The notes under the pieces: generated by a model
What the model saw: only the letters and a program-made list of their open reading frames with translations
What the model was told of the DNA's origin: nothing
Database searches by the model: none
Position numbers and translations under genes: made by a program
Assembly: GCA_002726205.1 (NCBI GenBank)
Contig: PBSL01000026.1
Span: 1 to 33,028 of the forward strand
Direction: 5' to 3'
From: Planctomycetaceae bacterium
GTDB taxonomy: Bacteria > Planctomycetota > Planctomycetia > Planctomycetales > Planctomycetaceae
Length of the DNA stretch: 33,028 nucleotides
Part shown: piece after piece, positions 1,118 through 33,028 of the stretch
How positions within the stretch are numbered: the first letter of the stretch is position 1
How the letters are laid out: each line of letters opens with the position of its first letter

Positions 1118-2217
1118 AGTGTGATGTCCGGGCCAAAACCGATCGTCCCGGGCACGGCGAGATGACCGTCGATGTAGGTCAGTGGCTGCGCGAGGACGTC
1201 GTCGGCGTAGAGCCCCGGGCCGACCAGGTCGCTGGGGAGGGTCAAGCCACGGATCGAGGCGGCCAGCTGGATCTGCGCGAGTGTTCCCGGCCCCATCTCG
1301 ACGGTACTTCCCAGCAGCAGGCCCACGCCGGCGGTTTCGGCCATCTGGGCGATTTGACGGGCCGGGTGGATGCCGCCGCAACCGGTCGTGGCAATGTTGA
1401 AGTAGTCGAGTGAGTCGTGCCGGATGTAGTCCAGGGCGTCGTCGGGGGTCACCACGTGTTCGATCAGGGGCACGTCGACCTCGCGCCGTACCGAGGCGAT
1501 CTCGGCGGCATCCCGGCCACCGACGGGCGTTTCGACTCCGGCAATGTCGAAACGGGCCAGGCGAGCGATGTTGGCGACCGCCTGGTCGCGGTTCCAACCC
1601 CCATTGGGGTCGATCTTGATGCTGGCTCGTGGCCCAGCCGTCTCGCGCATCACGGCCAGGCGTTGCTCGTCGAGGTCGATGTCGACTCCGACTTTCAGCT
1701 TGAAGGCCGTGAAACCCTCGCCGCACTTCCCGGCAATCTCCTCGCGCAACAATCCCAGGTCGTCACGGATGAAGGCCACCCACGAGATCCGGATCCGGTC
1801 GCGCCAGCGGCCACCCAGCAGACCGCAGACCGGCGTGTTGGTGGCATGGCTGGCCAGGTCGTAGCAGACCATGTCGAGGCCGGCGCGGGTCAGGCGGTTG
1901 AGCGAGGCACCCGCCTGGTCGGCTGGTTCGGGAAACAGCTGGGCCCAGTCCGCGTGCAATCGTGCGATTTCGATCGGATCGCGACCGACCAGGGCCGCGG
2001 CCACGCGTTGCTGCCAGTCGGCCGTCCCGGGCACCTCGTCGGGTTCGATGTCCGAGATTTCTCCCCAACCGACGTGGCCGTCGTCGGTCGTGGCCCGGAT
2101 GAACAGAAACGGCGAATCTTCGACGACGTCACGGGCACCGCCACCTTCCCGGGCGATTTGGGTCGCGTAGCGGCGGGTGACCCGGTAGGGGAACAACTGG
2201 ACGTCGGTGATTTTCAT
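1114..2217 (-). CDS. Mandelate racemase/muconate lactonizing enzyme family protein (enolase superfamily)
   Basis: This is a cytoplasmic enzyme of 367 residues, normal for the family, which removes a proton alpha to a carboxylate of an acid-sugar or amino-acid-like substrate bound to Mg2+. The N-terminal capping domain covers about residues 1-125 and the barrel about 130-350. Visible motifs are KLK (K173, K175) on barrel strand 2, D203-P-N205 and E229 as the first two metal ligands, and E253-H254 as the likely third ligand and neighbour. Where MLE-subgroup racemases carry a second catalytic Lys (N-I-K), this protein has N-I-A276, so its chemistry may rely on one base. It is the last gene of a four-gene minus-strand unit, 30 bp after the sulfatase. 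With the HpaI aldolase upstream, a sugar-acid dehydratase role is a reasonable inference; epimerase or cycloisomerase activity cannot be excluded. Confidence 0.85.
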   Translation of the reverse strand: MKITDVQLFPYRVTRRYATQIAREGGGARDVVEDSPFLFIRATTDDGHVGWGEISDIEPDEVPGTADWQQRVAAALVGRDPIEIARLHADWAQLFPEPADQAGASLNRLTRAGLDMVCYDLASHATNTPVCGLLGGRWRDRIRISWVAFIRDDLGLLREEIAGKCGEGFTAFKLKVGVDIDLDEQRLAVMRETAGPRASIKIDPNGGWNRDQAVANIARLARFDIAGVETPVGGRDAAEIASVRREVDVPLIEHVVTPDDALDYIRHDSLDYFNIATTGCGGIHPARQIAQMAETAGVGLLLGSTVEMGPGTLAQIQLAASIRGLTLPSDLVGPGLYADDVLAQPLTYIDGHLAVPGTIGFGPDITL

Positions 2218-2247
2218 CGATCAGGTCTCCGCGGGAGGGACTCGCTG

Positions 2248-3675
2248 CTAACGTCGCGACCGGGTCGGCAGCGGAGCTTTTACCCGGGTTCGCCATGCCT
2301 GCAACGTCGCGAAGAGACTGTTTGCGACGTCGGGCTGGTCGGCGGCCAGGTCGCGGGTCTCACCGATATCACGCCCGGTGTGGTAGAGCTCGCGGCGACC
2401 ATCCTCGAAGAACTCGATCAGTTTCCAGTCGCCCGAGCGGACTGCTCCGGCCGGCGTCGTCCGCCAGGTTCCCTTGCGGGCATTGGCTTGCAGGTAGCCG
2501 GGAAAATGCCAGAAGAGCGATCGGTCCGGAAGGGACCCTCCACGCAACAACGGCGTGAAACTGACACCGTCGGCGACCTGGTCGGCGGGCAGGGTCGTCC
2601 CGGCGATCTCGGCGAGCGTCGGGTAGAAATCGACCGTGATGATCGGTGTCGAACAGGTGGCACCGGCACGGGTCTGGCCGGGCCAGCGGGCGATCAACGG
2701 GACGCGGATTCCTCCCTCGTAGAGCATTCCCTTGCCACCTCGCAACGGGGCGTTGTCGGTGATGCTGCGTCCGGTCGATCCTCCCAGTGCCCCGTAGCCG
2801 CCCAGGCCACCGTTGTCGGAGGTGAAGATCACGACGGTTTCCCCGGTGAGTTTCAGCTCATCGATTGTGGCCAGGACACGGCCGACGCCAGCATCCATCG
2901 TCTCGACCATTGCCGCATACTTCGGATTGCCGTGCCCACCGGCGGGTTTTCGCTTCGCGTACTCGGCGGCCAGTTTCTGCTTGGCCTGGATTGGCGTGTG
3001 GACGGCATAGAAGGGCAGGTAGACGAAGAACGGCTTGCGGGGAAAATGCCTGACGTGTTGCCGGATCACGTTGGCCGCCTCGGTGGCGAGGCGGTCGGTC
3101 AGATTTTCGCCCGGGGGACCGTCCTTGAGTTGAGGGTTCTTGTAGGGGGAAAAATAGCCGCCGCGGGGCGAGCCGGTCTTGTTGCCCCCGAAGTTGATGT
3201 CGAATCCCTGCTGCCGTGGTCCGGCTTGCGGCGGCGGACCGAGATGCCACTTGCCGAAGTGGGCGGTCGCGTAACCGGCCGACTGCAATCGCTCGGCCAG
3301 CGTGAGAATGCCTGTGTCGAGAACGGTCCTGTTGACCACCGGGATCAGCTTGCGGAACTTCGCCTGGCCGCGCGCTCCCGTGCTGACCGTGTAGATGCCG
3401 TGACGGGGCGAGTACTGCCCGCTCATCAGGCAGGCCCGCGTCGGGGCACAGTTGGGGCCGCAGGTGTAGGCGGCGGTGAAACGGATGCCGGTTCTTGCCA
3501 GGCGGTCGATATTCGGCGTGCGGTAGTAACCGCTGCCAAAGCAGGCCAGGTCGGTCCAGCCCAGGTCGTCGGCAACGAACAGGATGATGTTCGGCGGTGA
3601 AGCGGGGGCTGTCGGTGCAAGCAGGGCAACGGCGAGGGCCAGGAATCCGAATCGACGCAGTGGGCTGGTCATCAT
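2248..3675 (-). CDS. Secreted type I sulfatase (arylsulfatase-like)
   Basis: This enzyme hydrolyses sulfate esters, probably on a polysaccharide or a released sulfated sugar. The 475 residues start with a Sec-type signal peptide (RRFGFLALAVALLAP, cleavage near residues 25-27). Then comes the sulfatase core with the metal-binding D36-D37 after NIILFVA. The active-site motif C76-A-P-T-R80 fits the C-x-P-x-R consensus, in which the Cys must be converted to formylglycine. Further conserved segments are GKWHLG, a FTSDNGG-type metal site, and PLRGGKGMLYEGGIRVPLIARWPG. No formylglycine-generating enzyme or anaerobic maturase gene lies in the window, so activation must come from elsewhere in the genome. 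It sits between the Asp-box protein (52 bp upstream) and the enolase-superfamily gene (30 bp downstream). The sulfatase assignment is firm; the substrate is unknown. Confidence 0.93.
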   Translation of the reverse strand: MMTSPLRRFGFLALAVALLAPTAPASPPNIILFVADDLGWTDLACFGSGYYRTPNIDRLARTGIRFTAAYTCGPNCAPTRACLMSGQYSPRHGIYTVSTGARGQAKFRKLIPVVNRTVLDTGILTLAERLQSAGYATAHFGKWHLGPPPQAGPRQQGFDINFGGNKTGSPRGGYFSPYKNPQLKDGPPGENLTDRLATEAANVIRQHVRHFPRKPFFVYLPFYAVHTPIQAKQKLAAEYAKRKPAGGHGNPKYAAMVETMDAGVGRVLATIDELKLTGETVVIFTSDNGGLGGYGALGGSTGRSITDNAPLRGGKGMLYEGGIRVPLIARWPGQTRAGATCSTPIITVDFYPTLAEIAGTTLPADQVADGVSFTPLLRGGSLPDRSLFWHFPGYLQANARKGTWRTTPAGAVRSGDWKLIEFFEDGRRELYHTGRDIGETRDLAADQPDVANSLFATLQAWRTRVKAPLPTRSRR

Positions 3676-3727
3676 GAAGGCTCTTCGAAGCGGTCTGTCC
3701 GGTCAAACTCCCGCGATCGGTCGCTGG

Positions 3728-4966
3728 CTACTTGTTCGGCTCGAGCAGGTCGATGCCCTGCCGGTCCTTGCGGATTCGCAGTCTCATGCCCCAGATGGCG
3801 GTTTTCTGCTGCTTGCCCCGGGGGTCGTAGTAGACCATGTAGATCGTGGAGTCGGGCAACTCGGTTCCGATGCCGTAGAGGTAGACGGAGTTGTCGATCG
3901 GGAAGCCGCGATCGGCCTTGGGGACCGTCCAGGTGCGACCGTTGTCGTCACTCCAGGTGATCTGCAGACCCCCGGTTGCGTGCCAGCCGAAGATGCAGAC
4001 GATCGTGCCGTCGGCGAGTGTCAGCAGGCAGGGGGCAACCATCTTGATGCCGGTGTCGACGGGACGAGTCCAGTGCCGGCCCTCGTCGTCGGAGAATGCC
4101 AGTTCTCCGTTCGGGCGAGCGATCATCACGATCCGTCCGTTGCGGGTCCGGGTGATCGCCGGCTCGTCCAGGGCGCCGCTGGTTCCTTTCAGCCGCGAGA
4201 CGAATTGCCATGTCTTTCCGCGGTCGTCGCTGCGATAGACCCCCAGTTGTTCGTGGCTGGTCCAGGTTTCCTTGCCGTAGGTGCTCAGCAGGATACGGCC
4301 CCCTGGCAGCACCACCGGCTTGCCGCACATGCGGTCGTAGTAAGCGAACGGTGATGGCATGTAGGTCGGACGACTCCAGCTCCGGCCACCGTTGGTCGAG
4401 CGAATCGAGGCGACGCGGCTGTTCTTGTTGCGGCCCGCCGGTGGCTTGTCGTAACCGTACCAGTTGTCGATCACGAAGAATGTGCAAACGAGCGTGCCGT
4501 CATCGAGTTCGACCAGGCACGGGTGTCGGTCGTCACCGGGAGTGTCCACGAGCGTGGTCGGACGGGTCCAGGTTCTTCCCCCGTCACGCGACCGGCACCA
4601 CAGGGCCCGGCCCCCGGTCGGCGCATCGATTTTCTCGGGGAACCCTCCCTGGATGTAACTCTTCAACAGATCGGGCTTGATGTCGATCGGCGTGGGGAAC
4701 GATACGTGCCAGTAGCCGGCACTGAAACTGCAGACCAGGTCACCGTTGCCGAGCCGGATCACCGATTCCCAGCCGACAAACCCGGTGCAGCCGGGATAGG
4801 CGGGGTGTTGGTTGACACCCGCACCGGTGATCTTTTGTCGCATCTTGCGGAAATCACCGGTCGAGGTGTCCTTGACGACCCGGACGGCAAATCCGGGTTC
4901 GGCCCCAGCGGCTTCGACCCCGGGCCAGCAACTCGCCAGCAGCAACAGCGACAAGACGGTGCGCAT
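3728..4966 (-). CDS. Secreted Asp-box (BNR) protein, sialidase-like exo-glycosidase fold
   Basis: This is a 412-residue secreted beta-propeller. I place the start at the ATG at 4966 because a typical signal peptide (MRTVLSLLLLASCWPGVEA) follows at once; a TTG at 5026 overlapping the upstream stop would add 20 polar residues in front. Five Asp-boxes of the S-x-D/N-x-G-x-x-W type are visible (SRDGGRTW, STNGGRSW, SDDRGKTW, SDDEGRHW, SDDNGRTW), the mark of a six-bladed sialidase/BNR propeller. Such proteins in planctomycetes are usually annotated as exo-alpha-sialidases, but many act on other glycans or only bind them. I do not see a clear full arginine triad, so catalytic activity is unproven. 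It is flanked by the aldolase gene (56 bp upstream) and the sulfatase gene, which suggests shared work on a sulfated, acidic glycan. Confidence 0.82.
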   Translation of the reverse strand: MRTVLSLLLLASCWPGVEAAGAEPGFAVRVVKDTSTGDFRKMRQKITGAGVNQHPAYPGCTGFVGWESVIRLGNGDLVCSFSAGYWHVSFPTPIDIKPDLLKSYIQGGFPEKIDAPTGGRALWCRSRDGGRTWTRPTTLVDTPGDDRHPCLVELDDGTLVCTFFVIDNWYGYDKPPAGRNKNSRVASIRSTNGGRSWSRPTYMPSPFAYYDRMCGKPVVLPGGRILLSTYGKETWTSHEQLGVYRSDDRGKTWQFVSRLKGTSGALDEPAITRTRNGRIVMIARPNGELAFSDDEGRHWTRPVDTGIKMVAPCLLTLADGTIVCIFGWHATGGLQITWSDDNGRTWTVPKADRGFPIDNSVYLYGIGTELPDSTIYMVYYDPRGKQQKTAIWGMRLRIRKDRQGIDLLEPNK

Positions 4967-16489: not shown

Positions 16490-17411
16490 ACCGCGGGCCG
16501 GGATGGGTCTCGTCGCCGATCACGACCGAAGTGGCCGGGAGCGGGATCCGCCGGGAGTGATCGTGCTCGTGATCGTGCAGGTGGGCGGGTTCGATGAAAC
16601 GGATTCCCCAGGCCAGCAATACGCCGATGACCAGGCAGGCAGAGTACTTGACGCGGTCGTGCGAATGGAACTGGATCTCGGGCAGCAGGTCGCCCAGGGC
16701 GATGCAGAGAAACACACCGGCGGAAAATGCCAGCGCGGCCGGAATGAACTGCCCGGCTGTCGGACCCGAGCTGCTGTCGAGCAGGAGATAGAACACCAAC
16801 GCGGACAGGGGGCAGACGGCGGCGAAGGCGATGTTGATTCGGCGTTGGGCGGAGTCTGACCAGCCACCGGCGGCCATCAGCGTGGTGATCGACATCGAGT
16901 CGAGTGGCTTGTGCAAGGCGATGGCCAGGAATGTTCCCACGCCGGCCAGGAGGACGCCGGTTTCTTCGGTCAAGGATGCCGCCACGGCAGTCGCCAGGGC
17001 CAGGCCATCGATCAGCGTGTGGATCGTCAAGCCGACAAAGACCCCGGTCCAACTCAGCCGATGCTGGTTGCCGTGGTGGTGAGCATGACTGTCGTCGTGG
17101 TCGTGGTCACAGGCGGCATCCCCGTTGTCGATCGACTCGACCGACCCGTGCTGGTGGAAGTGCAGGGCACGCACGAGAAAGAACATGGCGAGCAGGCCGA
17201 TCATCATGTAGGTCATCGACAAGTCGAGTGATCCACCGTGTTCGACCGAATGTGGCAGCATGTGGAAGCAGGCGACACCGAGCATGAAACCGGCGACCAG
17301 GCTCATCAGTGCGTGCAGTCGCACGTGCGTGAATCGAATGACCCGGGGCAACGAGCCACCAAGCAACGAGACGGCAGTGATCAGAACACAATAGATCAGT
17401 AGCGTCGGCAC
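16443..17411 (-). CDS. ZIP family metal (zinc) transporter
   Basis: This is a 322-residue inner-membrane protein with about eight membrane segments, which imports divalent metals, usually Zn2+. I prefer the GTG at 17411: it has AGGAC just upstream and starts directly before the first membrane helix (TLLIYCVLITAVSLLGG), whereas a start at 17498 would add an Arg/Pro-rich segment. The long loop after the third helix is His/Asp-rich (a stretch with D-H-D-H-D-D and H-A-H-H-H) and probably binds metal. TM4 carries H-T-L-I-D-G-L-A and TM5 H-K-P-L-D-S, variants of the ZIP metal-site motifs. A second His-rich stretch (HLHDHEHDH) is near the C-terminus. The stop overlaps the convergent SDR gene by 47 bp. 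Confidence 0.88.
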   Translation of the reverse strand: MPTLLIYCVLITAVSLLGGSLPRVIRFTHVRLHALMSLVAGFMLGVACFHMLPHSVEHGGSLDLSMTYMMIGLLAMFFLVRALHFHQHGSVESIDNGDAACDHDHDDSHAHHHGNQHRLSWTGVFVGLTIHTLIDGLALATAVAASLTEETGVLLAGVGTFLAIALHKPLDSMSITTLMAAGGWSDSAQRRINIAFAAVCPLSALVFYLLLDSSSGPTAGQFIPAALAFSAGVFLCIALGDLLPEIQFHSHDRVKYSACLVIGVLLAWGIRFIEPAHLHDHEHDHSRRIPLPATSVVIGDETHPGPRFTWPRSPHRPSGTRR

Positions 17412-17560
17412 GATTGTCCTGCGGTGGGCTGGCGGAGGGAGAGGGCGAGCGACCGACGATCGGCCGGGGGAAAACCGCAAGCTGTCGATTCTAGACATCC
17501 CGCCAAGGGAAACCCAAGCGATCGCCTTCGGATTGGATTCGCGCCGGCGACAAGGCCGAT

Positions 17561-17566
17561 TATACT
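17561..17566 (+). promoter_or_regulatory. Candidate -10 box of the tRNA-Gln promoter
   Basis: TATACT at 17561-17566 would start transcription near 17573, giving a leader of about nine bases before the tRNA. No good -35 hexamer is seen at the usual spacing (TTCGCG at 17538-17543). Sequence match only. Confidence 0.4.
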
Positions 17567-17581
17567 CTGGGACCGCGTGAT

Positions 17582-17652
17582 TGCCCGATAGTGTAACGGT
17601 AGCACGAGTGACTCTGAATCACTTAGTCTAGGTTCAAATCCTAGTCGGGCAA
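17582..17652 (+). tRNA. tRNA-Gln (anticodon CTG)
   Basis: This is a 71-base cloverleaf. The acceptor arms TGCCCGA and TCGGGCA pair fully, with discriminator A. The anticodon stem AGTGA/TCACT encloses the loop CTCTGAA, which gives anticodon CTG and reads CAG. The T stem CTAGG/CCTAG encloses TTCAAAT. The D arm is the short GTG/CAC type with TAACGGTAG. CCA is not encoded and must be added. Confidence 0.95.
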
Positions 17653-17656
17653 CTTC

Positions 17657-17672
17657 CCGGGACTCTTCCCGG
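17657..17672 (+). terminator. Weak hairpin after tRNA-Gln
   Basis: The arms CCGGGA and TCCCGG enclose the loop CTCT five bases after the tRNA. There is no T-run behind it, so termination is doubtful; it could instead aid 3' processing. Confidence 0.25.
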
Positions 17673-17726
17673 TGATGACCGCGGTCGGCAGGGAGGTCGG
17701 AGCAAAACCGAGGAAGGAACCAGGTC

Positions 17727-19025
17727 ATGTTGAATATTGAGTTCGGGCGCAGGGAAAAGAATTGCCAGGGCGTGACACGCCGCAACGTCTTGCAGGCGGG
17801 TGGCCTGGGTTTTGGAGGGTTGACGCTCTCGAACCTGTTGGCAGCGCGGGCGGCTGAAAAACCGGGTGTGACCAGGGACACGTCGGTCGTCTGGCTGTGG
17901 CTCAACGGTGGCCCGACTCATATCGAGACCTTCGATCCGAAGATGACCGCGCCGGTGGAATTCCGCAGCGTGACCGGCGAGGTCAAGACCGTGCTGCCCG
18001 GCGTGACGCTGGGAGGAAATTTCGGCGGGCTGGCCAAACAGGCCGACAAGATGGCGTTTGTCCGTTCATTTCGCATTCCCTCCAGCAGCCACAACGTGGG
18101 GGCCTACTGGGTGAACACCGGCCATGGATCCAATGCCAACCGGCCGTCGCTGGGATCGATCACCTCCCGCGCGCGTGGGCCCAATCATCCGCTGACCGGC
18201 ATGCCGACCTATCTGCAGATGGGGCGGATCGGTTTCAATACCGCCGCGCCGCTGATTCCCGGTCCGGCCTGGCTGGGCAAGGCCTATGCACCATTCAGTC
18301 CCAGTGGCCCGGCGCGGGAGAACATGAACCTGACGACCCAGGTCTCGCGGCTCGAGGACCGTCGTTCGCTGTTGAAGGGCCTGGACCAGATGCGCCACGA
18401 TGTCGATGCCAACGGCGTGATGGCCGGCATCGACGGGTTGAACCAGCAGGCCTTCAGCCTGATTCTTGGCCAGGCGACCCAGGCTTTTGACCTCGCCAGG
18501 GAAGACAAGCGGGTCGTGGCCAGTTACGGGGGCGGCCTCGGCCAGTCGCTGTTGATGGCACGCCGGTTGTGCGAAGTCGGCTGCGGCTTTGTCGCGGTCT
18601 CGTTGCAGGGCTGGGACATGCACAGCAAGGTCGCCGGCGGGATCAACAATCTCGGTCCCAAGGTCGATCGTGCCGTTTCCGCATTCGTCGAGGACATTTA
18701 CCAGCAGGGCCTGGACCGCAAGATCCTGCTGGTGATTTCCGGCGAGTTTGGCCGGACACCGCGAATCAACAAGAATGCCGGGCGGGACCACTGGGGTCCG
18801 CTGAGTACCCTGGCGCTGGCGGGGGGCGGCTTGAAGGTCGGCCAGGTGATCGGCCAGTCGTCGCCCAAGGCCGAGGTGCCGCGGACGGGACTGGTCACGC
18901 CGCAGGATCTGATGGCCACCGTGTTCCACGTCCTGGGCATCACGCCCGACACGGCGTTCGAGGATCCAGCCGGCCGACCGACCCGGATGCTCGAGGCTGG
19001 CAAGACGATTGCCGGCCTGGTCTAG
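17727..19025 (+). CDS. DUF1501 domain protein with twin-arginine-type leader
   Basis: This is a 432-residue exported protein. The N-terminus has T-R-R-N-V-L-Q-A-G-G, a twin-arginine leader of the kind common in planctomycete DUF1501 proteins. DUF1501 belongs to the alkaline phosphatase/sulfatase-like fold group. Conserved pieces are WLWLNGGPTHIETFDPK, the RSF...SSSHNVGAY stretch, and the probable metal site SGEFGRTPRINKNAGRDHWG. The biochemical role of the family is unknown; members usually accompany DUF1549/DUF1553 proteins, yet this one has no such partner next to it. It follows the tRNA by 74 bp, with AGGAAGGAA ahead of the ATG. Confidence 0.9.
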   Translation: MLNIEFGRREKNCQGVTRRNVLQAGGLGFGGLTLSNLLAARAAEKPGVTRDTSVVWLWLNGGPTHIETFDPKMTAPVEFRSVTGEVKTVLPGVTLGGNFGGLAKQADKMAFVRSFRIPSSSHNVGAYWVNTGHGSNANRPSLGSITSRARGPNHPLTGMPTYLQMGRIGFNTAAPLIPGPAWLGKAYAPFSPSGPARENMNLTTQVSRLEDRRSLLKGLDQMRHDVDANGVMAGIDGLNQQAFSLILGQATQAFDLAREDKRVVASYGGGLGQSLLMARRLCEVGCGFVAVSLQGWDMHSKVAGGINNLGPKVDRAVSAFVEDIYQQGLDRKILLVISGEFGRTPRINKNAGRDHWGPLSTLALAGGGLKVGQVIGQSSPKAEVPRTGLVTPQDLMATVFHVLGITPDTAFEDPAGRPTRMLEAGKTIAGLV

Positions 19026-29399: not shown

Positions 29400-29472
29400 T
29401 GAGGGCGACAGGATTCGAACCTGTGACCTACGGATTAAAAGTCCGTTGCTCTGCCAACTGAGCTACGCCCCC
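29400..29472 (-). tRNA. tRNA-Lys (anticodon TTT)
   Basis: This is a 73-base cloverleaf on the minus strand. It has acceptor GGGGGCG with CGCCCTC and discriminator A, and a D arm with AGCTCAGTTGGCAGAGC. The anticodon arm CGGAC-TTTTAAT-CCG gives anticodon TTT, and the T arm ACAGG-TTCGAAT-CCTGT is complete. CCA is not encoded. Confidence 0.95.
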
Positions 29473-29553
29473 TCCTGCCGTCAAACGTGCTGATAATCGT
29501 AGCGATTGAGTGGGGAACGGGTCGAGCCAGAAGACCCGGTGGCCAACGACAAG

Positions 29554-29587
29554 GCCCCGGTTGCCACCGTTGTGGCGGGACCGGGGC
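29554..29587 (-). terminator. Strong hairpin after the outer-membrane protein gene
   Basis: The outer arms GCCCCGGT and ACCGGGGC (8 bp) and inner arms TGCCAC and GTGGCG (6 bp, one wobble) enclose the loop CGTT, with a two-base bulge. It lies 40 bp past the stop of the minus-strand gene and before tRNA-Lys. The following minus-strand sequence is CTTGTCGTT, a weak U-tract, so it is a likely intrinsic terminator. Confidence 0.55.
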
Positions 29588-29627
29588 ATTGAGGCATGGG
29601 AAATCCGGAAGGCCGACGATCGCCGCT

Positions 29628-31028
29628 CTACCAGTGAATTTCGATTCGAGCCTGCAGACCGTCGAAGGTCAGCGAGTCGTCGAGCTTGTAGAGGTTGTTG
29701 TCCTGAACCCCCTGGATGAAGCGACCGGTCGTCAGCGTGTTGTGATAGGTGGCGACATAGTAGGCCCCCGAGAATCGCCAGTTGCCGTTGGGGCTGTCCC
29801 AACCGATCCCGACCTCGAGTTCGGTGACCGGGACGAAACGACTGTCGTCAATCTCGGCCGTGGCCTGGGGTGTCGTGGATCCGCCGAAGGAATTCGTCTG
29901 GACGTATTCGGCGGTGACGTGCCCCAGCAGCATCGAGAGGGCACTCCGCACGAACAGGTGCATGCGACCGTCGAAGGGGCGTTCGAGTTCCAGGCCCAGG
30001 CGAGGCCCGCATCCGTCGAAGCCAAGAGCGGTATCGACGTCGGTCGTTCCCAGGACCGAGTAACTGGCATGGAAATCCTCGTCGATCCGCGTGTACCGGG
30101 CCCCGACGGTCAGGTCAAGATAGTAGAGGTCGCCGTCGTAGACGGTGCTGCGGTAGTGGGCATCCACGACGTCGAAGTCGAGGTCGAATTCGGCGGAGGT
30201 CGCCAGGTTGTCACTGATCACCGAGAGCGTGTTCGGGTGCATCGTGATCGGATCAAAGTAGCCGGTACCGCCGGGAAGCGAGGCGCTGCGGTGCAACTGG
30301 CTCTGGTAGAACCAGTAGTTGCCCGAAAGACTGGATTCGTCAGTCAGGTTGCTGGTCAATCCCACCCGGAATCCGGGCTGAAACATCGGGTCAGCATAGA
30401 GTGTGGCCCCGATGGGGACGGCGTTTGTTCCCAGGCCGTCGGTCGGAGTTGCGTAGGGAATGTCGACACTGCGAGCCTGCAGGTACAAGAACTCGCCGAT
30501 AAGGCCGCTGCGGTGGTTTTGCCGAACGCCGCGGCCCGAGGGGTCGCAATCGCCGGCGGGGACACAATTCTCGTCGTCGAGCAGTCGCACGGTGTCGGCC
30601 TCGTAGACTACCGGTCGGCCAAGCCCCCGGTGGGCGGCCGCTTCCAGCGGGGGAGGAATCAGGAGGTCGTCGGTCGTCGATCGTGGCTGGGTCGGTGGGA
30701 CCGGTGGGGTCGATGAGGTTTTTGCCACGGCTGGTCGAAAAATGGCTTTCTTGGCCTTTTTGACCAGAACGTCCTGGTCGGGCGTCTCCGCCTTCTGCAG
30801 CGTGGTTGTCCCGGCATGCTTATCGGCCTTGGTCAGTGAAGAACTGGCCTTCTTGGGACCGGGACGGAATTTCGCAAAGAATCCCTTCACCGCAGCTGCC
30901 ACGCTGGTCTTTTTCTTCGGAGCAGTCGAATTGATGTTCTCTTGCTCCGCGGCTCCCAAGTCCGCCGACGCCAGGATGCTGAACAACAGTGCCACGCCAA
31001 GTGCCGTGCGGAATGCGGTGGGACGCAT
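29628..31028 (-). CDS. Lpg1974-like outer-membrane beta-barrel protein
   Basis: This is a 466-residue exported protein from the ATG at 31028, with AGAGG upstream and a signal peptide (RTALGVALLFSILASADLGAA). Residues about 30-140 are low-complexity, rich in Lys, Ala, Ser and Pro. From about residue 175 a barrel begins with GEFLYLQARSVDIPYATP, then GFRVGLTSNL and repeated amphipathic strands with YYLDLTVGARYT, GPRLGLELERP, RFSGAYYVATY, ending in the terminal strand ARIEIHW with the aromatic last residue of outer-membrane proteins. The pattern fits the Legionella-type major outer-membrane protein (Lpg1974) family expanded in planctomycetes. The transported solute is unknown. Confidence 0.75.
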   Translation of the reverse strand: MRPTAFRTALGVALLFSILASADLGAAEQENINSTAPKKKTSVAAAVKGFFAKFRPGPKKASSSLTKADKHAGTTTLQKAETPDQDVLVKKAKKAIFRPAVAKTSSTPPVPPTQPRSTTDDLLIPPPLEAAAHRGLGRPVVYEADTVRLLDDENCVPAGDCDPSGRGVRQNHRSGLIGEFLYLQARSVDIPYATPTDGLGTNAVPIGATLYADPMFQPGFRVGLTSNLTDESSLSGNYWFYQSQLHRSASLPGGTGYFDPITMHPNTLSVISDNLATSAEFDLDFDVVDAHYRSTVYDGDLYYLDLTVGARYTRIDEDFHASYSVLGTTDVDTALGFDGCGPRLGLELERPFDGRMHLFVRSALSMLLGHVTAEYVQTNSFGGSTTPQATAEIDDSRFVPVTELEVGIGWDSPNGNWRFSGAYYVATYHNTLTTGRFIQGVQDNNLYKLDDSLTFDGLQARIEIHW

Positions 31029-31915
31029 GGGCAACCTCTTCTTTTCCGACAGTGAGTTTTTGGGAGGATTGTATCGATTGTGCAAAGGATGCACGAAAGC
31101 GCCATTGCCCGTCTGTATCGGTCACACGAGTGGCGCCAGCGTAGAGTTTTTCGTGAAGTTATCTGAAACAGGACAGCGAGATCTCAATCGCTCTCAAAAA
31201 ATGCAGCGCTTTCCTGCGAAAAGGGCTCTGACAGGATGCTCCAGCCCATGTCTGCGCCAGGAAGTGCCGAAGAAACCGAAGTAACTCATCTTGTCCCTCA
31301 GGGACTTTCATGGCAGCATGTGCCCTGGTGTCTTCATGGAAGATTTCTGACACGCCCAGGGACGGGAAAATGTACCTCAGATCCTGGCCTGCTGGCCAGA
31401 GCATCGGGCGAAGCTTCAAAGCAACCGTGAGGAGGTCTCGTGTTGTTCGAGACCGACTGGCGGCCGCACCTCAGCGACCCGATAAGGACCCGAAACGTGT
31501 AACTACTTATTCTTTGTGTTCGTTGAAAAATTCCCAAATTATTGACGAATCGCAATTTACCTATCTTGCGTAAACCCTTTATTCGTGGCAATATGGTTGG
31601 TTGGGATGTTTGGCTGGCACGACCGGGAGGATCTTTTTCTTCCAGGGTGGTGGCGGTCGTTGGGTCATCAGGGTGGACGACTCAGATTTTTCCACGGTGG
31701 GAGACAGGTGTCTGTCGTTTGAAAACTGGTTACTCGAAATCCCAATTGCTGATTGACTGACTATTGATGACGCTGACTTCTGGAAACCGAGGAACTGCAT
31801 CTGCAGTCCGCCGTTGCGCAGGTAAGTCCTGCGGACGGTCGGGTCGTGGGCGTGGTTCTTTTTTTTGTAGATCCAACTAATCCACTGAGTTTCGATTCTC
31901 GAAGGATGTGACTCG
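31029..31915. other. 887-bp intergenic region between divergent outer-surface genes
   Basis: No convincing gene is seen here. An 86-codon minus-strand frame (31159-31419) and a 64-codon plus-strand frame (31236-31430) have no ribosome-binding site or family match. The left part may hold the outer-membrane protein promoter (TACAAT on the minus strand at 31068-31073). A small hairpin GGTCTCG/CGAGACC lies near 31434-31454. Positions 31495-31620 are clearly AT-rich against GC-rich flanks and include a possible promoter TTTACC-16-TTTATT (31557-31584) reading toward the surface protein gene. A stronger hairpin and a T-run precede that gene. The region appears to be regulatory or untranslated leader. 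Confidence 0.5.
31811..31866 (+). promoter_or_regulatory. Structured leader of the surface protein gene: hairpin and downstream T-run
   Basis: CCGTT and CGCAGG pair with CCTGCG and GACGG around the loop TAAGT (31811-31838), 11 base pairs with a single bulged G. A run of eight T follows at 31859-31866, about 20 bases later, so it is not a classic terminator. It sits 77 bases before the start codon and could act as an attenuator-like or stability element. Confidence 0.4.
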
Positions 31916-33028
31916 ATGTTTTTTACGCCTTGGCTCCGCACGTTGGGCAATCGTCTTCGTTCCCGTTCCGTCCGCAAGGACCGCAGCAAGTCTTTGCAGA
32001 AACGATCGGAACAGCCGGCCGCCGCAATGGTGGAGTTGTTGGAGGACCGGACGCTGTTGACGATTGACGTCACAGCTTTCGCGGCGACCTCGGCGACGAT
32101 CACCGGGGGGGCCGACGCCAACGCCCTGGTCCTGGGGCAAAACGCTGGCGGGTTCCTGACGCACAACCTGTCGGGTAATCCGAATGCCACTGGTGCCTAC
32201 GCCGATGCAACGGACTTCGATCCCGGTGCCGGCACTCAGACGATTGCTGTGGCGACGGCTGGAACGATTGCTGTCAACCTTGGCGACGATGCGGATTCGA
32301 TCACGATCGATGACTCGCAGGGACTTGGCCTGCAAGGGGCAGCCTCGATTCACATCGACATTGATGGTGAGGGCGGAAGCGACGAGTTGATTGGCCCGGA
32401 TACGGCCGCGATGCTCTATGCGGTTACCGCCGCGAATGCCGGCAACCTGGGCGGTGCTGGCGTGACCGATTTTGCGAACCTCGAAAATCTCACCGGCGGC
32501 ACCCAGGCCGACACGTATGACGTGACCGCCGCGGGCAGCCTCGGGGGAGCGATCGACGGCAAGGCCGGCAACGACGTGCTCCTGGGGACCGGGATTGACG
32601 CGGTGGTGCTGACCGGAGCCGACGCCAACGGTTATGCGGGAACCGAGCCAAACATCACGGGTAACTTCGACCACATCGTCACCCTGACCGGTACCGGGGG
32701 CACGCTGACCGGCCAGGCGGTCGACAGCGTCTGGACGCTGAGTGCGACACCAACATACTTCAACGGTGCCCAGGTACTGAACCACTCCGGGTTCGCCACG
32801 CTGCAGGGCGATAGCGGCGAGGACACGTTCAACGTGACCTTCGCCAATGCGTTCAACCTCAATGGTGGTGGCAACGATGATGAATTCGACATCGACGCGG
32901 TGCTGACGGGAACCGCCGACGGCCAGGCTGGTGCCGACACGCTCGAGGGAACCGAGATCAACGCGGTGGCGCTGACCGGAGCCGACGGCGACGGATTTGC
33001 CGGAGCCGACGGAGTGACCGCCTTCGAC
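31916..33028 (+). CDS. Large repetitive surface protein with LEPR-XLL-type N-terminus, 3'-truncated by the window edge
   Basis: The frame opens at the ATG at 31916, nine bases after GAAGGA, and stays open for 371 codons to the window edge. The first 40 residues are basic (SRSVRKDRSKSLQKRSE), followed by M-V-E-L-L-E-D-R-T-L-L-T (residues 38-49). This matches the LE(P/D)R-x-LL motif found at the start of very large planctomycete extracellular proteins. The rest is acidic, rich in Gly, Asp, Ala and Thr, with G-x-x-G-x-D-x-L turns as in beta-solenoid or Ca2+-binding surface proteins. A repeat with a period of 121 residues is seen: AVVLTGADANGYAG at 229 and AVALTGADGDGFAG at 350, with IDGKAGND and ADGQAGAD in the same register. 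It is probably secreted and many times longer than shown. Function (adhesion, cell surface) is an inference. Confidence 0.85.
   Translation, partial: MFFTPWLRTLGNRLRSRSVRKDRSKSLQKRSEQPAAAMVELLEDRTLLTIDVTAFAATSATITGGADANALVLGQNAGGFLTHNLSGNPNATGAYADATDFDPGAGTQTIAVATAGTIAVNLGDDADSITIDDSQGLGLQGAASIHIDIDGEGGSDELIGPDTAAMLYAVTAANAGNLGGAGVTDFANLENLTGGTQADTYDVTAAGSLGGAIDGKAGNDVLLGTGIDAVVLTGADANGYAGTEPNITGNFDHIVTLTGTGGTLTGQAVDSVWTLSATPTYFNGAQVLNHSGFATLQGDSGEDTFNVTFANAFNLNGGGNDDEFDIDAVLTGTADGQAGADTLEGTEINAVALTGADGDGFAGADGVTAFD

What the first reader, a model, noticed from the sequence alone, without database searches (positions are those of the whole stretch)
31916..33028. Start of a very large repeat-built surface protein running off the window
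The open frame has no stop in 371 codons, a planctomycete LEDRTLL N-terminal motif, and a 121-codon repeat in perfect register (codons at 32552/32915 and 32594/32957 are exactly 363 bp apart). This points to a giant acidic surface or secreted protein whose repeat unit I cannot match to a named domain. It may be a new repeat family.
Basis: partly seen in the sequence, partly recalled or inferred. Interest (0 to 1): 0.6.

Follow-up and report, generated by a model that had tools for sequence, protein, structure and literature searches.

The report
Planctomycete calcium-roll repeat surface protein
This is the cut-off start of a probable exported planctomycete surface protein whose repeat contains 19-residue calcium-binding-type turns like those in a bacterial ice adhesin, so it is a new arrangement of a known building block rather than a new kind of repeat.

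Summary
An open frame (31916-33028, 371 codons) runs off the contig end, carries LEDRTLL near its start, and repeats a 36-residue stretch 121 codons later (21/36 identical; score 104, best of 200 shuffles 75). The gene is real: collinear orthologues in two Planctomycetaceae MAGs, dN/dS about 0.09-0.25. The "121-residue repeat" is a unit of variable length (104 residues in window copy 1, 121-149 in relatives) with GxxxxD turns 19 residues apart plus a Trp-containing spacer. A profile of these rungs picks one solved structure, the Ca2+-bound beta-roll of the Marinomonas ice adhesin (3p4g, E=2.9e-6); two column-permuted profiles do not. Relatives carry 1-4 copies, in complete proteins of 872-1192 residues and in frames of up to 6,249. 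"Acidic, repeat-built, probably exported" is supported, "very large" cannot be decided, and "new repeat family" holds weakly: no Pfam match, but an RTX-roll variant. Structure models were poor; calcium binding, export route and partner are untested. Thirteen LEDRTLL proteins lie in the genome; the nine complete ones end in an IDExF-type tail, a possible second tag.

The parts
31916..33028 (+). 5' part (371 codons) of the repeat-protein gene; runs off the contig end
   Evidence: open to the last base of contig C27; dN/dS 0.09-0.25 between and against orthologues over the first 218-223 codons
31902..31906 (+). AAGGA, likely ribosome-binding site, 9 nt before the ATG
   Evidence: read directly from the sequence
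31916..32062 (+). basic N-terminal segment ending in LEDRTLL (residues 42-48 at 32039-32059); no hydrophobic signal-peptide core (highest 12-residue hydropathy mean 0.23)
   Evidence: strongly conserved in the two orthologues; 13 LEDRTLL sites in the genome against 0 for the reversed control pattern
32063..32488 (+). Gly/Asp/Thr-rich lead-in region conserved with the orthologues, with one RTX-like turn at residue 151
32489..32800 (+). repeat unit copy 1 (residues 192-295): two GxxxxD turns (194, 215) plus Trp-containing spacer
   Evidence: (profile of nine relatives' units, i-E 1.3e-25)
32801..33028 (+). repeat unit copy 2 (residues 296-371), cut by the contig end: three GxxxxD turns at 298, 317, 336 (19-residue steps)
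   Evidence: (i-E 9.6e-19)
29628..31094 (-). divergent neighbour: outer-membrane beta-barrel protein (Legionella_OMP, PF05150), kept beside this gene in three relatives; functional link inferred only
   Evidence: (L022, L023, L054)

Best explanation
The gene encodes an exported, calcium-dependent, RTX-type surface protein. A basic N-terminus ending in LEDRTLL probably acts as an export or sorting tag (inferred). The rest folds outside the cell, once calcium is available, into stretches of right-handed beta-roll with 19-residue turns: a Ca-binding GxGxD-type turn on one side and a non-binding loop on the other, as in region IV of the Marinomonas ice adhesin. These rolls alternate with Trp-containing spacers to give units of about 104-149 residues. 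Relatives suggest that the unit array is followed by other modules and then either a classic RTX array or a longer stalk. Most likely role: a stiff spacer or adhesive layer at the outer membrane, for attachment to surfaces or other cells. Shown: coding, homology, unit anatomy, 19-residue spacing, sequence match of the rung profile to the solved roll. Inferred: calcium binding, location, export, function.
For: Collinear orthologues in two named MAGs, neighbours from 20.7 kb to the gene conserved, under purifying selection. Full-length unit in relatives. GxxxxDxU turns at 19-residue steps: two pairs in the window protein (0 of 5000 shuffles reach this) and 35 steps of exactly 19 in the unit regions of five relatives. 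Seven RTX-like motifs in the window protein against a shuffle mean of 0.38, maximum 3 in 1000. The rung profile A7 hits 3p4g at E=2.9e-6, the next PDB sequence at 0.3; 0 of 2 column-permuted control profiles hit it. The published consensus of that roll, XGTGND-XUXU-GGXUXG-XUX with 19 residues per turn, fits (passages). Of the five relatives with the unit, the two scanned with Pfam have PF00353 arrays (16 and 15 stretches), and all five have 18-22 strict GGxGxDxU motifs against at most 4 in shuffles.
Against: The window protein alone has no Pfam match up to E=10, no NCBIfam match up to E=1, and its residues 298-371 have no PDB match up to E=10. The full-unit profile reaches 3p4g only at E=0.076. 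The rows of A7 were chosen after the motif was seen. The full rung consensus with loop glycine fits just one window rung (9 of 1000 shuffles also give one) and one in G138 (26 of 1000); in the other four relatives 2-5 fit (0 of 1000 each). AlphaFold models are poor (mean pLDDT 41 and 53) and Foldseek finds nothing at E <= 0.001. No HlyB/HlyD match above cut-off in the genome. No adhesive Pfam domain in the visible part.
Confidence: 0.6

Rival explanations
1. The protein is a generic filamentous (haemagglutinin/autotransporter-like) beta-helix stalk in which the acidic GxGxD look is only composition; calcium plays no part.
For: The orthologue L022 carries DUF5649 repeats, a family treated as a stalk domain in PMC8286594 (passages); the giant relative L072 carries PATR, Cadherin, Big_9 and Laminin_G_3.
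Against: The 19-residue spacing and the 3p4g match with clean permuted controls; five relatives with the unit go on into RTX motif arrays (Pfam on two of them; motif counts on all five).
Confidence: 0.24
2. The gene is an ordinary-sized (about 900-1500 residue) extracellular RTX protein with nothing giant about it; the contig simply ends inside it. This concerns size and does not exclude the best explanation.
For: Five relatives with the same unit are 872-1192 residues with a stop. An orphan C-terminal piece of 657 residues at the end of contig C46 matches the orthologue's downstream region and could be its end.
Against: The collinear orthologue is open for at least 1,506 residues, and 7 of 11 other genomes found with the unit have it in frames of 5,515-6,249 residues. 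C46 is not proven to join: no shared 14-mer within 600 bases of the ends.
Confidence: 0.4
3. The frame is a chance GC-rich open frame, not a gene.
For: The opposite strand is also open through 31877-33028, as GC-rich DNA often is.
Against: Conserved start, likely ribosome-binding site, substitutions mostly at third positions and dN/dS of 0.09-0.25; unit homologues in 11 other genomes of 392 drawn from the phylum.
Confidence: 0.01

Closest known systems
Region IV of the Marinomonas primoryensis ice-binding RTX adhesin (MpAFP/MpIBP, PDB 3p4g)
   Same: 19-residue rungs, GxGxD-type turn, strand, non-binding loop ending in G, strand; only significant PDB match of the rung profile
   Different: There: thirteen rungs in a row with GTGND turns and ice-binding activity (passages of PMC3492233). 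Here: blocks of two to five turns between Trp-containing spacers, and the window turns (GDSGED, GGGNDD, GQAGAD) lack GTGND
RTX nonapeptide repeat proteins (PF00353)
   Same: Acidic, Gly/Asp-rich; two scanned relatives with the unit carry PF00353 arrays; 177 PF00353 matches reported in the same genome
   Different: The window protein is not matched by PF00353 and its turns come at steps of 19 or more, not every 9
LEPR-XLL N-terminal domain proteins (NCBIfam NF012209) and planctomycete giant genes
   Same: Short N-terminal LExRxLL motif on long exported proteins; an N-terminal LEPR-XLL plus C-terminal RTX giant protein of about 8000 residues is described in Vibrio (one passage of PMC10868602); planctomycetes are rich in giant genes (passages of PMC5177795)
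   Different: The window's LEDRTLL segment is not among the 8 NF012209 matches in this genome up to E=10, although two other LEDRTLL proteins (C54, C7) are, below the cut-off
DUF5649 stalk repeats (PF18886)
   Same: Present downstream in the orthologue L022; treated as a stalk domain of fibrillar adhesins (passages of PMC8286594)
   Different: Not found in the visible part of the window protein

Membership tests
RTX repeats, PF00353 | match to the nonapeptide-repeat model | tested here: not met
   window protein: no Pfam family up to E=10; relatives L048 and L050: 16 and 15 stretches
Half-calcified 19-residue beta-roll (3p4g type) | Asp turns at 19-residue steps with the U-x-U strand and loop pattern | tested here: met
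   controls. Met for the unit family; in the window alone two 19-step pairs and one full rung, and no PDB match on its own
Half-calcified 19-residue beta-roll (3p4g type) | Ca2+ bound on one side only | not testable with these tools
   needs a structure or a binding assay; AlphaFold models too poor
MpIBP ice-binding domain | GTGND turns of the published rung consensus | tested here: not met
   window turns read GDSGED, GGGNDD, GQAGAD (sequence)
Type I secreted RTX adhesin | HlyB/HlyD-type exporter in the genome | tested here: inconclusive
   TIGR01843 and TIGR01846: no match over the cut-off; below-cut-off proteins exist (best 341.8 bits against 725.55 for TIGR01846); genome 96% complete
Type I secreted RTX adhesin | uncleaved C-terminal signal after RTX repeats | not testable with these tools
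   the C-terminus lies beyond the contig end
LEPR-XLL (NF012209) | model match over the curated cut-off | tested here: not met
Giant gene (over 5 kb) | gene length over 5 kb | not testable with these tools
   1,113 bp visible; contig ends
Fibrillar adhesin-like protein | at least one known adhesive and one known stalk Pfam domain | tested here: inconclusive
   no Pfam domain in the visible part, but most of the protein may be missing; the orthologue shows only DUF5649 in its 1,506 residues

The most novel reading that the evidence does not exclude
Planctomycetes carry a two-tagged class of exported calcium-roll proteins: a basic N-terminus ending in LEDRTLL and a C-terminal EIDExF-type tail, exported by a route other than the canonical HlyBD/TolC type I system. 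The window protein is built from a previously undescribed stalk unit that splices the 19-residue half-calcified roll, here matched only to an ice adhesin among solved structures, with Trp-containing spacers.
Probability: 0.25. Interest if true: 0.55.

Novelty: new variant of a known kind. Interest (0 to 1): 0.36.

Why it matters
It gives a defined, expressible unit (about 121 residues) with a testable calcium-roll fold inside the long repeat proteins of planctomycetes. It also points to paired N- and C-terminal motifs that could be tested as export tags in a genome where no canonical type I exporter passed the models used here.

Tried and rejected
Extending the gene: the window is the whole contig, so extension in the same genome is impossible. 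Further unit copies elsewhere in the genome: the unit profile gives two matches up to E=10, both in the window's own contig.

Candidate missing 3' part: contig C46 ends in a 657-residue C-terminal orphan that is the only match at E <= 0.01 to the orthologue's downstream region (E 1.2e-14; residues 709-911 of L022, E 3e-20) and ends in RTX-type repeats. I keep it only as a candidate. Its module also occurs in other giant proteins, including the 7,539-residue one of the same genome (E 1e-10). Its first 70 residues have no good match, and no 14-mer is shared near the two contig ends. Four N-terminal orphans (C27, C32, C68, C69) and at least three C-terminal orphans (both ends of C46, and C66) compete.

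Structure: AlphaFold on the window protein (9-row alignment, pLDDT 41) and on the orthologue's 61-residue repeats (5 rows, pLDDT 53) gave all-beta models of low confidence. Foldseek of the second model had no match at E <= 0.001 (best 0.53). RTX and beta-helix proteins stand high in that list, but I do not count this as evidence.

Plasmid collection: no relative of the window protein at E <= 1e-3. The orthologue L023 matches one Synechocystis plasmid (E 1e-10) over residues 729-847 only, outside the unit. PDB searches: P0001 none at E <= 0.01; the 61-residue unit of L022/L023 gave an odorant receptor at E 0.027 and one at 0.5, taken as chance.

A profile search inside the script printed nothing (the step failed silently); it was redone. 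Ice binding was considered and rejected because the window's turns lack GTGND.

Full report
What is in the sequence. The frame 31916-33028 is open for 371 codons and stops only because the contig stops: the window is the whole of contig C27 of a 4.86 Mb, 76-contig genome. The start has an AAGGA nine bases upstream. LEDRTLL is at residues 42-48. After residue 50 there are 43 acidic residues and 1 basic residue, and there is no cysteine.

It is a gene. One scan of genome contigs confirmed 7 loci. Two, L022 (Planctomycetaceae RS395, Red Sea by its title) and L023 (UBA9460), are orthologues: 63-64% identical over the first 223 residues and collinear with the window from about 20.7 kb to the gene. 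dN/dS is 0.032/0.344 between them, 0.274/1.203 for L022 and 0.276/1.086 for L023 against the window, with third positions changing most. Both orthologue frames also run off their contigs, after 1,506 and 855 residues. The other five loci match only about the first 50 residues.

What the repeat is. With a profile of the first 223 residues, 61 of 170 genomes of the family had a match at E <= 1e-5. I read nine stretches chosen from the best of these, one from the own genome and eight from seven others. Five proteins of one genus (G131, G133, G137, G138, G140; 872-1192 residues from my chosen Met, all with a stop) contain the window's unit, 40-44% identical in each one's best match. Two others read (G136 and G190) show only a short stretch of about 40 residues. 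Unit copies are 121-149 residues long, and the window's first copy is 104. A profile of nine such copies finds the window's two copies at i-E 1.3e-25 and 9.6e-19, and 1-4 clear copies per protein in the other unit-bearing proteins read. In a draw of 392 genomes of the phylum, 12, the own genome included, have the unit at E <= 1e-5, in 4 of 267 genera. In 7 of the 11 others the best match lies in a frame of 5,515-6,249 residues; the other four frames are 1,511-3,909. The genus of the five proteins above is not among the 12.

The unit is not a uniform 121-residue period. It contains turns GxxxxDxU (U hydrophobic) at steps of exactly 19 residues: 298, 317, 336 in the window, and 35 such steps in the unit regions that I marked out in the five relatives. 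Two 19-step pairs occur in the window protein; 0 of 5000 shuffles reach that. In L022/L023 the unit is shorter, 61 residues, with turns 21 (once 22) and 40 apart. Length differences between copies come in part from adding or dropping rungs. The rest of the unit is a spacer of the form TLTG...W.L....TY.....L..GF.TL.

Match to a known roll. A profile of ten 48-residue rung stretches (one from the window, nine from the five relatives) against the PDB sequences gives one significant hit, 3p4g, the antifreeze protein of Marinomonas primoryensis, E=2.9e-6; the next is 0.3. Two column-permuted versions of the profile do not find it (0 hits, and one unrelated at E=0.98). Against this: the rows were chosen after I saw the motif, the full-unit profile reaches 3p4g only at E=0.076, and the window residues 298-371 alone find nothing up to E=10. 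The published description of that domain (passages read) is one turn of 19 residues, XGTGND-XUXU-GGXUXG-XUX, with Ca2+ on one side only (PMC6891781; PMC3492233). One window rung, GGGNDDEFDIDAVLTGTAD, fits the whole pattern; 9 of 1000 shuffles also give one fit. In four relatives 2-5 rungs fit (0 of 1000 shuffles each), in G138 one (26 of 1000). The window lacks the GTGND turns, so ice binding is not expected.

What follows the unit in relatives. In L048 (G131) and L050 (G137), the two relatives scanned, Pfam finds PF00353 RTX arrays (16 and 15 stretches); all five have 18-22 strict GGxGxDxU motifs, shuffles at most 4. In L022, DUF5649 repeats follow. In the giant L072 there are Laminin_G_3, Cadherin, PATR and Big_9. 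So the visible 5' part does not tell how the window protein ends.

The family in this genome. A LEDRTLL DNA pattern occurs 13 times, against 0 for the reversed pattern. I read all 13: nine end with a stop (849-7,539 residues, the start codon being the script's choice) and four run off contig ends (C27, C32, C68, C69). Of the 12 others, ten have 17-52 RTX-like motifs and two have none. All nine complete ones carry [IVA]D[EDQ]x(1-2)[FV] in the last 40 residues; shuffled tails do so in 2-16% of cases. I wrote this pattern after seeing those tails, so it is a fit. In a second set, 12 loci picked from the PF00353 hits (a capped list), 11 frames have a stop and 4 of 11 match the same pattern; three more have near variants (EIDGEF, EINELF, EINENF) by eye, and four have neither. 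Against a general rule, the tails of the five relatives of the other genus differ (one of five, G138, fits the pattern). The tail could be a C-terminal sorting or secretion tag. The canonical type I secretion models TIGR01846 and TIGR01843 have no match over their cut-offs, so the export route is open.

Novelty. [quoted passage not shown] A search for Planctomycetes with LEDRTLL in the text library gave 0 papers; LEPR-XLL gave 2. Planctomycet* with RTX and adhesin gave 4 papers; of these I read passages of PMC8286594 only. I therefore file this as a new variant of a known kind.

Noticed in passing
G000 loci L055, L078, L079+L080, L081, L083, L084, L085, L087 (C-termini); also L093, L094, L096, L102: RTX-type proteins of this genome share a C-terminal EIDExF-like tail: 9 of 9 complete LEDRTLL proteins (pattern fitted on them) and 4 of 11 other RTX frames with a stop. 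Possible uncleaved export or sorting tag.
   Followed up: partly
L090 (G000:C46 right end, 657-residue frame open at the contig end): Orphan C-terminal RTX piece, the only match in the genome at E <= 0.01 to the orthologue's downstream region; candidate continuation of the window gene.
   Followed up: partly
contig ends of G000: C27, C32, C68, C69, C46 (both ends), C66, C41: Several contigs break inside LEDRTLL or RTX frames, as do the orthologues' contigs: these genes seem to limit assembly and may be under-counted in MAGs.
   Followed up: no
L079+L080 (G000:C13): A 7,539-residue LEDRTLL open frame with 43 RTX-like motifs, a true giant frame in the same genome.
   Followed up: no
L055 (G000:C21:160000-172000): Two neighbouring LEDRTLL-RTX frames of 1,762 and 1,123 residues; they contain what look like zinc-metallopeptidase motifs (HEYSHG and HELGHL in the printout; assignment recalled, not searched).
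   Followed up: no
window 29628-31094: Outer-membrane beta-barrel gene (PF05150) kept divergent to the repeat gene in L022, L023 and L054; possible functional partner.
   Followed up: partly
window 17582-17653 (+) and 29400-29472 (-): tRNA-Gln (CTG) and tRNA-Lys (TTT) genes; the ORFs listed at 17396-17905 and 29428-29802 overlap them and are probably not genes.
   Followed up: no
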